A DNA stretch of 64,000 nt from Kitasatospora cheerisanensis KCTC 2395 (lineage in GTDB: Bacteria > Actinomycetota > Actinomycetes > Streptomycetales > Streptomycetaceae). The DNA is taken from positions 5,007,602-5,071,601 of the forward strand of contig NZ_KK853997.1 of the NCBI RefSeq assembly GCF_000696185.1, read 5' to 3'. A program made the translations under genes and the position numbers. The notes below the pieces were generated by a model. It did no database searches and was not told the origin of the DNA. It was given only the letters and a program-made list of their open reading frames with translations. This document shows, one piece after another, positions 56,697 to 64,000 of this stretch (its first letter is position 1; each line of letters opens with the position of its first letter).

Positions 56697-57482
56697 CTAC
56701 TCGGGCCGCTGGAGCCGGGTGGTGAACTTGTACCGGTCGCCGCGGTAGATCGAGCGCACCCACTCCACCGGCGCGCCGTCCGCGTCGAAGGAGTGCCGGG
56801 ACAGCTGCAGCATCGGCAGGCCCAGGTCGGAGCCGAGCAGGCCGGCCTCGCGCGGGTTGGCGAGGGTGGTCTCGATGGTCTCCTCGGCCTCCGCGACCGT
56901 CACCCCGTAGACCTCGCGCAGCGCGGTGTACAGCGAGTTGTGCTTGGCGAGGTTGCGCCGGAGCGCGGGGAAGCGCTTGGCCGACAGGTGCGCCACCTCG
57001 ATCGCCATCGGATCGCCGTTCGCGAGCCGGAGGCGCTCGATCCGCAGCACGCGCCCGCCGGGCTTGATGTCCAGCAGCGGGGCGAGCCGCTCGTCCGCGG
57101 AGATGTACGCGACCTCGACCAGGCGCGAGGTCGGCTCCATGCCCTGGGCGCGCATGTCCTCGGTGTACGAGGTCAGTTGCAGCGCCTGCGCGACCTTCGG
57201 CTTGGCGACGAAGGTGCCCTTGCCCTGGATGCGCTCCAGCCGGCCCTCGACCACCAGCTCCTGCAGCGCCTGCCGGACGGTGGTGCGCGAGGTGTCGAAC
57301 TGGGCGGCCAGCGCCCGCTCCGGCGGCACCGGGGTGCCGGCCGGCTGGGTCTCGGTCAGCTGCAGCAGGTGCCGCTTCAGGCCGTAGTACTTCGGCACCC
57401 GGGCCGTGGCGGTGGCAGGGCCGGTCTGGGTCGGCACCGTGGAGCCCTCGGCGAGCGCCGCCGCATCCCTGTCGCCACTCAT
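56697..57482 (-). CDS. dasR: DasR, GntR/HutC-family N-acetylglucosamine regulator
   Basis: 261 residues. A disordered start (~1-28) is followed by a winged helix (~30-100) with [20 protein letters not shown] and [20 protein letters not shown], the DasR recognition wording. The UTRA effector domain (~110-255) senses GlcN-6-P/GlcNAc-6-P. It controls chitin and GlcNAc use, development and antibiotic genes through dre sites, three clusters of which lie in this window. ATG 57482 (GAGGAG upstream) is preferred over GTG 57494. It follows the das operon but is separated from it by a terminator. Confidence 0.93.
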
Positions 57483-57510
57483 GGCAGCTCTCACTCCTCG
57501 TTGGAGGCGG

Positions 57511-57532
57511 TCCTTAACGGACCCCTAAGTCC
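57511..57532. repeat. motif CCTTAA-nn-GA-n-CCCTAAG, copy 1 (upstream of dasR)
   Basis: TCCTTAACGGACCCCTAAGT lies ~35 bases before the dasR start. A second copy is at 62991-63010. Both are imperfect CTTA/TAAG palindromes. It is not a dre site. Confidence 0.45.
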
Positions 57533-57600
57533 TATGTAACAGCACATGTTTGCACGCACGGGGAAGCAAGCGGGAGCGCCCGCGGGCAAACCGGTACGCG

Positions 57601-61337: not shown

Positions 61338-62651
61338 TCAGCCGTTCAGGTCCTTGACGATGGTGTCCTGGGCCTTCTTGAGCTCGGCGGCCGCGTCGCC
61401 ACCGGCGGCGATCGCACCGAAGGCGTTCTTCAGCGCGGTCTCGTCGGCGCCGGACCACAGCGGCGAGTTCGGGATGAACCAGGTCGCGCCCTCGGCCGCG
61501 TCACCGGTCGCCTTGTTCGCCGGGTCGGCCTGCTTGTAGGTGGCGACCAGGTTCTTGGCGTTCGGGATGGCGTGCTTGGCCAGCGCGGTCTGCTGCTTGG
61601 TGTTGGTGTAGATCTGCAGGAAGGTCGCGCCCAGGCCCGGGTTGGCGGACTTGGACGGGACGGCCAGGTCGGAGCCGCCGAGGAACGCCGGGGTGGTGGA
61701 GCCGGCCGCGGTGCCCGGGAGGGCGATGGTGGCGAGCTTGTCCTTCAGCGCCGGGTCGCCGGTCTTCGGGTCGGCGACGGCGGAGACCTCCCAGCCGTTG
61801 CCGATGATGGCGGCGATGTTGCCCTTGGCCATCAGCGCGTCCTGGGTGGCCTCGTCAGTGGTGGTGCCACCGACCGAGAACTCCTTCTGCAGGTCGTTCC
61901 AGGTCTTGACGCCCTCGACGAACTTCGGGTCGGTCAGGTTGCCGGTCCACTTCTCGCCGTCCTTCTTGGCGATGACACCCTTGACACCGAACGGGCCCGC
62001 GCCGAAGGAGACGGCGGAGTACCAGTTCTGGCCCGGCATGTACAGCGCGGAGAAGCCCGGGACGGCGGCGTTGGCGGCCTTGACCTTGGTCAGGGCGGCC
62101 TTCAGCTCGTCGACGGTGGTCGGCGCGGCGGTGACGCCGGCGGCGTCGAACAGGTCCTTGCGGTAGATCAGGACGCGGGCGCCGGCGTAGTACGGGACGG
62201 CGTAGGTCTTGGAGCCGTCGGCCGACTGGCCGGAGGCGGCCAGCGAGTCCAGCCACTTGTCCGAGTTGTCGAACTGGCTCTTGACCGAGGTCAGGTCGAC
62301 GAAGGAGCCGGCCTCGATGTACTTGGCGGCCTGGGTGTTACCGAGCTCCAGCGCGTCCGGGCCGTTGCCGGAGAGCAGGGCGGTGTCGAGCTTGGTGGTG
62401 TAGTTGGTCCAGGTCTGCCACTGGATGTCGACCTCGGCGCCGGTCTGCTCGGTGAACTCCTTCTTCGCCGCCTCGACGACCTCGGGCCAGCCCTTCTGGG
62501 CGTCGTCCATCAGCCAGACGGTGATCTTCTTGCCCTTGCCGTCCTTGCTCAGGGTGGCCTGGTCGCCGCCGGAGCCGGACGAAGACGAGGAGCAAGCCGA
62601 GGCGACGAGCACGGTGGCAATGGCGGCCACGGCTGCGATCTTGCGGTTCAA
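61338..62651 (-). CDS. dasA: DasA, chitobiose-binding lipoprotein
   Basis: 437 residues. A lipoprotein signal ends at Cys20 (VLVASAC), followed by a Ser/Gly-rich tether and a two-lobed CUT1 solute-binding fold (VWLMDDAQKGWPEVV, LELGNTQAAKYIEAG, AVPYYAGARVLIYRKDLF). It captures chitobiose at the membrane for DasBC. TTG 62651 is chosen because GGAGG lies five bases upstream and the signal peptide starts there. The promoter carries overlapping dre sites. Confidence 0.9.
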   Translation of the reverse strand: MNRKIAAVAAIATVLVASACSSSSSGSGGDQATLSKDGKGKKITVWLMDDAQKGWPEVVEAAKKEFTEQTGAEVDIQWQTWTNYTTKLDTALLSGNGPDALELGNTQAAKYIEAGSFVDLTSVKSQFDNSDKWLDSLAASGQSADGSKTYAVPYYAGARVLIYRKDLFDAAGVTAAPTTVDELKAALTKVKAANAAVPGFSALYMPGQNWYSAVSFGAGPFGVKGVIAKKDGEKWTGNLTDPKFVEGVKTWNDLQKEFSVGGTTTDEATQDALMAKGNIAAIIGNGWEVSAVADPKTGDPALKDKLATIALPGTAAGSTTPAFLGGSDLAVPSKSANPGLGATFLQIYTNTKQQTALAKHAIPNAKNLVATYKQADPANKATGDAAEGATWFIPNSPLWSGADETALKNAFGAIAAGGDAAAELKKAQDTIVKDLNG

Positions 62652-62801
62652 ACCATCCTCCAGAGGGATGAGCAAGGTAGGGCACCGGGCTGCCGGGCCA
62701 CTGGGCCCTGAAGCTGCGTCGTGCCGTAGGGGGAACGTCACCGGGTGACACGGACACGAACTGCCGGGGCAGGCGGGCCGATCCGTGAGGTGGAGTAGAC
62801 C

Positions 62802-62853
62802 ATTGGTTTAGACCAACGCCTGGAGATTGGCATGGACCAATGACGAGCGTCAA
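62802..62853 (-). promoter_or_regulatory. dasA promoter with two dre sites
   Basis: On the minus strand TTGACG (62853-62848), 18-base spacer, CAATCT (62829-62824). A dre-like ATTGGTCCATGCCAAT (62841-62826) covers the spacer/-10. A near-consensus dre, ATTGGTTTAGACCAAC on the plus strand (62802-62817), sits at the predicted start point. Confidence 0.75.
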
Positions 62854-62904
62854 GGGATCGAAGAGCGTCTGCACAAGCCGTTATCAACGCTTGACTCGGC
62901 CGTG

Positions 62905-62918
62905 TTGGACTGGACCAA
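62905..62918. promoter_or_regulatory. third dre-like site in the dasA/SBP2 gap
   Basis: TTGGACTGGACCAA differs from TTGGTCTAGACCAA at two central positions. It lies ~52 bp upstream of the dasA -35. Confidence 0.55.
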
Positions 62919-62990
62919 GTCGGGGGCGGATCCGGATATGGCGGGACGAATCGACCACCCGCGGTGGTAGCTCAACGTGGCCTGAAGGGA

Positions 62991-63010
62991 ACCTTAAGTG
63001 AGCCCTAAGG
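62991..63010. repeat. motif CCTTAA-nn-GA-n-CCCTAAG, copy 2
   Basis: ACCTTAAGTGAGCCCTAAGG, matching the dasR-upstream copy at most positions. It lies ~85 bp upstream of the SBP2 -35. Confidence 0.45.
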
Positions 63011-63094
63011 GGCATACCCGTGCCGGTATTGACGTGACCGGGGCGGAACCGGCAACGGATCGGCAACAAGCGGGACTTGTAATCATCACGCGCG

Positions 63095-63145
63095 TTGACG
63101 CTGCAAATGGTCTAGGCCAGGATCCGGAAAAGCTGGTCTGTACCA
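63095..63145 (+). promoter_or_regulatory. promoter of the second SBP gene with two dre-like sites
   Basis: TTGACG (63095-63100), 17-base spacer, CAGGAT (63118-63123). TGGTCTAGGCCA (63108-63119) fills the spacer and TGGTCTGTACCA (63134-63145) lies just after the predicted start. Confidence 0.6.
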
Positions 63146-63182: not shown

Positions 63183-64000
63183 GTGAAGCGTCAGGTTCTG
63201 GCCGCGATCAGCACCGCCGCTCTGCTGGCCACCGTCGCCGGCTGCTCGTCCGACGGGAAGTCGGCCGCGCCGTCGACCACCCCCGACCCGAAGAACGCCA
63301 CCGGGACCGTGACGGTGTGGCTCATGGACGACGCGCAGAAGAGCTGGCCCGAGCTGGTCCAGCAGGTCAACGACCAGTTCGCCGCCAAGTACCCCAAGGT
63401 CGAGCTCAAGCTCAGCTACCACACCTGGGCGAACAAGATCGCCGAGCTGGACGCCGCCATCAAGGCCAACCAGGCGCCCGACGTGGTCGAGCTCGGCAAC
63501 ACCGAGACCATGAAGTACATGGTGAACGGCTCCCTGCTGGGCCTGGACCGCACCGGATTCGACAACTCCGACAACTGGATCAAGGGTCTCGCCGACACCT
63601 GCACGTACAACCAGAAGCTTTTCTGCGTCCCCTATTACGCGGGCGCCCGGGTCGGCGTCTACAACGCGAAGATGTTCCAGGACGCCACCGGTTCCGCGGA
63701 CCTTCCGCAGACCGAGGACGAACTCACCGCCGCCCTCGACAAGGTGGCCCAGCGCTACAAGGGCAACCCCGGATTCTCCGCGCTCTACCTGCCCGGCCCC
63801 TACTGGTACGCCGCGATGTCCTACGTCACCGCGTACGGCGGCTCGATCGCCAAGTTCGACTCCAGCGGCAACTGGCACGGCACCCTGCACGACCCCAAGT
63901 CGCAGCAGGGCCTCCAGCACTTCGTCAACCTGGTCAAGACGTACAACAAGAGCGGCGACCTCAAGGTCAACGAGGCCAAGCAGGCCGGCGTGCTCGGCCA
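63183..64000 (+). CDS. DasA-like sugar-binding lipoprotein, 3' end outside window
   Basis: At least 272 residues; truncated by the window. Lipobox VAGC (Cys21), then VWLMDDAQKSWPELVQQ, VVELGNTETMKYMVNGS and CVPYYAGARVGVYNAKMF. It is clearly a paralogue of DasA, divergent from it. GGAGG lies about five bases before GTG 63183. The dre-like operators predict DasR control. Its ligand may be chitobiose or another aminosugar. Confidence 0.9.
   Translation, partial: MKRQVLAAISTAALLATVAGCSSDGKSAAPSTTPDPKNATGTVTVWLMDDAQKSWPELVQQVNDQFAAKYPKVELKLSYHTWANKIAELDAAIKANQAPDVVELGNTETMKYMVNGSLLGLDRTGFDNSDNWIKGLADTCTYNQKLFCVPYYAGARVGVYNAKMFQDATGSADLPQTEDELTAALDKVAQRYKGNPGFSALYLPGPYWYAAMSYVTAYGGSIAKFDSSGNWHGTLHDPKSQQGLQHFVNLVKTYNKSGDLKVNEAKQAGVLG

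What the first reader, a model, noticed from the sequence alone, without database searches (positions are those of the whole stretch)
57511..57532. Undescribed repeated motif (CCTTAA-nn-GA-n-CCCTAAG) at dasR and in the dasA/SBP2 gap
A ~20-base A/T-containing imperfect palindrome occurs ~35 bases before the dasR start and again at 62991-63010. It is unlike a dre site. Its presence at both control regions of the locus suggests a second regulator (or DasR autoregulation through a non-classical site).
Basis: seen in the sequence. Interest (0 to 1): 0.55.

Follow-up and report, generated by a model that had tools for sequence, protein, structure and literature searches.

The report
Predicted switch site for chitin genes
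The repeated DNA motif is real and is best read as the docking site of a so far undescribed signal-sensing protein pair that seems to switch on chitin-digesting genes in Kitasatospora and Streptomyces, with extra copies in the chitin-sugar uptake genes of this strain.

Summary
Both reported sites exist as stated, but the motif is a direct repeat (CCTTAA-n5-CCNTAA, 11-bp period; three units at 62981-63009), not a palindrome. The das-gap array belongs to SBP2: it precedes SBP2 in all 18 loci (of 80 fetched) that carry SBP2, whichever gene lies on the other side. The dasR copy is clade-specific (12 of 70 Kitasatospora genomes). The same box stands at fixed spacing before -35 plus dre in GH18 chitinase promoters (66 of 70 Kitasatospora genomes, reversed control 0), before LPMO genes, and, across Streptomycetaceae, between an OmpR-type two-component pair and an exochitinase-like gene: present at <=1 mismatch in 23 of 25 loci with that chitinase, 0 of 12 without; 66 bp from a -10-like TAGCGT in 20 of 21 measured promoters. 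Of 22 genomes lacking the response regulator 19 have no exact box. Best explanation: operator of this chitinase-linked OmpR-type regulator, a second input beside DasR. Binding, signal and direction of control are inferred. The pair does not fit ChiS/ChiR as tabulated (NarL type, HK-RR order). The papers searched listed no description of it.

The parts
62981..63009 (+). Array of three box units CCTGAA / CCTTAA / CCCTAA (starts 62981, 62992, 63003; 11-bp period), predicted response-regulator operator upstream of SBP2, in the dasA/SBP2 gap
   Evidence: array in 19 of the 21 loci with DasR >=87% identical, upstream of SBP2 in 18 of these
57512..57529 (-). Box at dasR, CTTAGGG-n4-GTTAAGG on the dasR coding strand (orientation opposite to the chitinase boxes), 30-47 bp before ATG 57482
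   Evidence: same 18-mer in 12 of 70 Kitasatospora genomes
57532..57555 (-). Block GTGCAAACATGTGCTGTTACATAG upstream of the dasR box; its GTGCnAC(C/G)ATGTG part recurs upstream of many dasR genes; possible dasR promoter element
   Evidence: by eye
56697..57482 (-). dasR (GntR/HutC-type regulator; a GTG start at 57494 is also possible)
61338..62741 (-). dasA, substrate-binding protein ORF (true start probably downstream of 62741)
63183..64000 (+). SBP2, second solute-binding protein (SBP_bac_1), runs past the window end
63095..63119 (+). SBP2 promoter: TTGACG (-35-like) followed by dre TGGTCTAGGCCA (63108-63119)
62834..62853 (-). dasA promoter-like TTGACG followed by dre-like TGGTCC
62804..62815 (.). 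dre TGGTTTAGACCA between dasA and its promoter-like element

Best explanation
The motif is the operator ('box', CCTTAA-n5-CC[CGT]TAAG, direct repeat, 11-bp period) of an OmpR/PhoB-type response regulator whose gene lies with its HAMP/HisKA sensor kinase directly upstream of an exochitinase-like (CBM2 plus GH18-like) gene in many Streptomycetaceae. On a chitin-related signal the phosphorylated regulator would bind side by side on the repeats upstream of the -35 element and activate chitinases and an LPMO, while DasR represses many of the same promoters through dre at the -10/+1 region: a signal-gated activator plus a repressor lifted by amino sugar. In Kitasatospora the array also stands before SBP2 of the das region, and in one clade a box stands at dasR. 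Shown here: conservation, spacing, gene context, co-occurrence. Inferred: binding, phosphorylation, signal, activation; most uncertain is the dasR copy, where the reversed orientation and the position downstream of the possible promoter would fit repression of dasR.
For: Two own GH18 chitinases carry the box, TTGACG and dre in the same order. That architecture is in 66 of 70 Kitasatospora genomes with 0 control matches and in 2 of the 324 other family genomes searched, both genus g12; all rows listed span 55 or 56 nt although the pattern allowed 43-70. Of 29 dre places in the own genome (<=1 mismatch) only 3 have a CTTAAGG pair at <=3 mismatches within 150 bp. The array precedes SBP2 in 18 of 18 loci that carry SBP2 (>=64% identical): 6 with divergent dasA behind it, 12 with the 3' end of a dasD-like gene behind it, at a nearly constant distance to the SBP2 promoter. 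Between kinase and exochitinase, or overlapping the kinase's last codons, the box is present at <=1 mismatch in 23 of 25 loci with the chitinase and 0 of 12 without (Fisher p 5e-8); L314 (truncated), L332 and L333 (repeats of the same genomes) were dropped. Box to TAGCGT is 66 bp in 20 of 21 promoters measured, 67 in one (repeats dropped; 4 of the 25 did not fit the measuring pattern). LPMO_10 genes follow boxes in Kitasatospora (L248; by N-terminus L250, L252, L258) and other genera (L353, L354, L359). The regulator is OmpR-type (PF00072+PF00486), and the segment DQTIDVHLSWLRRKLGE, where the recognition helix should lie, is identical in the 10 orthologues aligned. Genomes without the regulator: 3 of 22 have a box, against 266 of 372. 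OmpR-type regulators PmrA and CiaR bind TTTAAG-n5-TTTAAG, nearly the same half-site and the same spacing.
Against: No binding or expression data. Genomes are related, so p-values overstate. 106 of 372 genomes with the regulator have no exact box. A second site class in Streptomyces (CCTTAAGGCAACCTTAAG and relatives) precedes an HATPase-domain gene next to an enoyl-CoA hydratase, not a chitin gene. 8 of 30 Kitasatospora boxes classed had no assigned target. The array lies 85 bp upstream of the SBP2 -35, much farther than at the chitinases and, by my hand count, not in the same helical phase. In L023 the array is kept although SBP2 is absent. Three genomes have boxes but no regulator found (G043, G047, G179; 640, 1290 and 400 contigs). 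Beside the own pair the exochitinase is missing.
Confidence: 0.72

Rival explanations
1. Another OmpR-type regulator with the same half-site (for example the 56-64% identical paralogue) or a global regulator binds the box; the adjacent pair is only a neighbour.
For: The own genome has 36 PF00486 matches; a paralogous pair in G007 has CCCTAAAGAACCCCTAAG beside its kinase; HATPase-class sites in Streptomyces.
Against: Box absence parallels absence of this regulator (3 of 22 against 266 of 372 with a box), and the box lies by this kinase, before the chitinase, in all 25 loci with the chitinase at <=2 mismatches (2 of 12 without).
Confidence: 0.17
2. The motif is a non-classical DasR site used for dasR autoregulation.
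For: It sits at dasR and beside das genes; a study announces 'non-canonical' DasR targets in S. coelicolor (PMC4398421: title and cut abstract, passages).
Against: Unlike dre, separate dre sites stand beside it, absent at dasR in 77 of 80 loci, and 26 of 29 own dre places have no such motif within 150 bp.
Confidence: 0.04
3. The SBP2 and dasR copies are evolutionary by-products without function in this strain, though the chitinase boxes work.
For: The dasR copy is limited to one clade and lies downstream of the possible promoter; beside the own pair the exochitinase is missing, and no LPMO was found at the own box near C1:3063223.
Against: The array is kept before SBP2 in 18 of 18 loci with SBP2, in two different gene orders, mostly at the same distance from its promoter. 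This last fact came out on re-checking and made me lower this rival from 0.2 to 0.15.
Confidence: 0.15

Closest known systems
PmrA and CiaR operators (TTTAAG-N5-TTTAAG)
   Same: Direct repeat of a TTAAG-containing hexamer, 5-bp gap, 11-bp period, bound by OmpR-type response regulators (passages seen, PMC10927774 and PMC3091779)
   Different: Other organisms and targets; here the half-site is CCTTAA/CC[CGT]TAAG in chitin-gene promoters
ChiS/ChiR (SCO5378/SCO5377) of Streptomyces coelicolor and Chi65S/Chi65R
   Same: Two-component pair next to a chitinase gene; chitin or allosamidin response (passages, PMC9739842 and PMC6269690)
   Different: Tabulated as NarL type in HK-RR order (PMC9739842, table section read), for chiC; the pair here is OmpR type in RR-HK order beside an exochitinase-like gene
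DasR and dre
   Same: Many of the same promoters and the same pathway
   Different: dre is A(G/C)TGGTCTAGACCA(G/C)T (PMC6097792, passage), a palindrome; the box is a direct repeat and lies apart from it
CutR of Streptomyces
   Same: OmpR-type regulator, RR-HK gene order (PMC9739842 table)
   Different: Binds TAWATAAA (PMC12802291, passage)

Membership tests
OmpR/PhoB-type direct-repeat operator | Two or more half-sites in the same orientation at about one helical turn | tested here: met
   11-bp units, three to four in tandem before SBP2
OmpR/PhoB-type direct-repeat operator | Fixed position upstream of the promoter | tested here: met
   66 bp to TAGCGT in 20 of 21 measured; 55-56 nt span in all rows listed; before SBP2 the distance is nearly constant but much larger
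OmpR/PhoB-type direct-repeat operator | Bound by the cognate regulator | not testable with these tools
   Needs EMSA or footprinting
ChiS/ChiR system | NarL-type effector domain | tested here: not met
   PF00486 Trans_reg_C against 'NarL' in the table of PMC9739842
ChiS/ChiR system | HK-RR gene order | tested here: not met
   RR, then HK, then chitinase where present
ChiS/ChiR system | Sequence identity with SCO5377/SCO5378 | not tested
   No named S. coelicolor sequence was compared
DasR-responsive element (dre) | TGGTCTAGACCA-like palindrome | tested here: not met
   Compared by eye; dre sites are separate from the box
CutR site | TAWATAAA | tested here: not met
   Published site compared by eye with the box

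The most novel reading that the evidence does not exclude
An undescribed chitin-sensing OmpR-type two-component system controls chitinolysis across Streptomycetaceae, and Kitasatospora rewired it onto a das-region solute-binding protein and, in one clade, onto dasR itself, so that one sensor both activates chitin genes and lowers their repressor.
Probability: 0.4. Interest if true: 0.75.

Novelty: new member of a known kind. Interest (0 to 1): 0.6.

Why it matters
Chitin and GlcNAc control in these antibiotic producers is usually told through DasR. A review notes that ChiR binding to the chiC promoter could not be shown (PMC10345050, passage). This work gives a defined 18-bp sequence, a candidate gene pair and a target list (exochitinase, GH18 chitinases, LPMO, SBP2 of the das region, dasR) that can be tested by one binding assay and one deletion.

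Tried and rejected
Palindrome reading: dropped, since tandem units keep one orientation. Iron-box, PhoP and AfsQ1/GlnR sites were compared from memory only and did not fit. CutR: excluded by its published site. A regulator gene with CTGAAG repeats in its promoter (L199) was looked at and not followed. ChiS/ChiR: first assumed in my notebook (searches use that name), dropped after reading the table. Genome-wide enrichment of the motif: not found, so not used. 'dasA/SBP2 gap' as the conserved place: corrected on re-check; in 12 of 19 array loci the neighbour behind is a dasD-like gene, and in L023 SBP2 is absent. A search for CCTTAAG in papers gave hits that look unrelated by title in the 15 of 18 listed. 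Searches for the regulator listed no description of this pair by title or abstract start (15 of 29 papers listed; 37: 10 of 249; 48: 6 of 7; 58: 4 of 4; 68: 8 of 3,160; 75: 3 of 3; 85: 10 of 20); subscription papers are mostly not held, and the 2002 Folia Microbiologica paper on ChiR was not seen, only cited by others.

Full report
Observation. The window is G000:C1:5007602-5071601; the genus, Kitasatospora, is inferred from the closest das loci. Both sites are exactly where reported, and a third unit overlaps the second. Raw counts in the genome are not above reversed controls, so I tested conservation and location.

Form and place. At most 5 mismatches to a three-unit CTTAAGG consensus are found in 19 of the 21 loci L017-L037 and in none of the 59 loci L038-L096 (some loci are short). 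The first two units are nearly invariant at TTAAGG, the third is mostly TTGAGG. Gene content: in L017-L022 the array lies between divergent dasA and SBP2, as in the window; in 12 loci (L024-L028, L030-L036) it lies between the 3' end of a dasD-like gene and SBP2 on the same strand; in L023 SBP2 is absent and the gap is dasA/SIS; L037 has neither SBP2 nor array; L029 ends before the region. So the array goes with SBP2 (18 of 18 loci with SBP2), not with dasA. Its distance to the SBP2 promoter (TTGAC followed by dre) is 114-115 in 14 of 20 rows, 124-126 in three, 103-104 in two, and not measurable in L023; the dasA side, where present, varies. The space between also holds a conserved CAAC-repeat block, so constant spacing need not be due to the box alone.

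dasR copy. Of the 80 loci only L017, L018 and L019 have the box at dasR; the identical 18-mer is in 12 of 70 Kitasatospora genomes, and for four of these the place between dasD and dasR was checked. Orientation relative to dasR is opposite to that at chitinases and SBP2.

Chitinase promoters. Two further own-genome hits (L003, L007) precede GH18 chitinases (PDB matches to chitinases), each with box, TTGACG and dre. The architecture recurs in 66 of 70 Kitasatospora genomes and, of 324 other family genomes, in two of genus g12, control 0. Of the four Kitasatospora without it, G029, G038 and G049 still have exact boxes; G015 has none and also lacks the regulator.

Regulator. Boxes in 31 Kitasatospora genomes (80 matches against 53 for the reversed control) led to loci fetched. 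Six of the 17 sites read lie beside an OmpR-type regulator/kinase pair and before a secreted-looking protein; its example L247 has CBM2 and a catalytic part that matches exochitinase 1 in the PDB (Pfam GH18 is below its cut-off). Others precede LPMO_10 genes. Thirty Kitasatospora box loci were classed: 22 assigned (8 GH18, 5 before SBP2, 4 dasR, 3 LPMO, 1 exochitinase, 1 beside a paralogous kinase), 8 not.

Family-wide test. The regulator is in 372 of 394 family genomes at E 1e-70. All 38 non-Kitasatospora genomes with a match were fetched; one is truncated. In the other 37 the box (<=1 mismatch) is present in 23 of 25 loci with the exochitinase-like gene and 0 of 12 without (p 5e-8); at <=2 mismatches 25 of 25 and 2 of 12. 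Box to TAGCGT is 66 bp in 20 of the 21 promoters that fitted the measuring pattern and 67 in L316 (repeats dropped). Exact boxes occur in 3 of 22 genomes without the regulator and 266 of 372 with it (p 7e-8, not corrected for relatedness). G021 first looked like an exception, but its regulator gene is split over two frames. G171 and G083, counted as having it, have only a 56-60% identical relative and no box.

Mechanism. The half-site and spacing are of the kind bound by OmpR-type regulators PmrA and CiaR, and the segment that should hold the recognition helix is identical in the 10 orthologues aligned (helix placed by analogy). I infer activation by tandem binding upstream of -35, with DasR as the repressor of many of the same promoters. 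Signal, phosphorylation and binding are not shown.

Known systems. ChiS/ChiR is tabulated as NarL, HK-RR, so this pair is not filed as ChiS/ChiR; a mistaken table entry cannot be excluded. That ChiR binding to chiC could not be shown is from a passage of PMC10345050.

Noticed in passing
window 63049-63066 and the rows: A second conserved block CAACRGGTCTGCAACG (CAAC repeated at 11 bp) between the array and the SBP2 promoter in many rows; possible site of another regulator.
   Followed up: no
L335, L338, L340, L343 and other Streptomyces loci: CCTTAAGG-type repeats, some with three units, between an enoyl-CoA hydratase gene and an HATPase_c_2 gene.
   Followed up: partly
L017-L036: Two different das gene orders: dasA-B-C-D-dasR in one direction (as in the window) and a divergent, 37-41% identical dasA-type operon; SBP2 with its array occurs with both.
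   Followed up: partly
G000:C1:3063223-3063251 (L147): The own genome keeps a three-unit box at the place where other Kitasatospora have an LPMO gene, but no LPMO was found in the 10 kb around; a short secreted-looking ORF follows.
   Followed up: partly
G000:C1:3113563-3113580 (L114, L246): The own genome keeps the regulator and kinase genes and a decayed box, but the exochitinase is missing beside them.
   Followed up: partly
window 57532-57555: GTGCnAC(C/G)ATGTG block upstream of dasR recurs in many Streptomycetaceae dasR loci (by eye).
   Followed up: no
window 62891-62917: A further TTGACT plus dre-like TGGACTGGACCA on the + strand between the dasA promoter and the array; role unclear.
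   Followed up: no
L262 (G007:C1:2504315): A paralogous regulator/kinase pair (55% identical regulator) has CCCTAAAGAACCCCTAAG beside its kinase gene.
   Followed up: no
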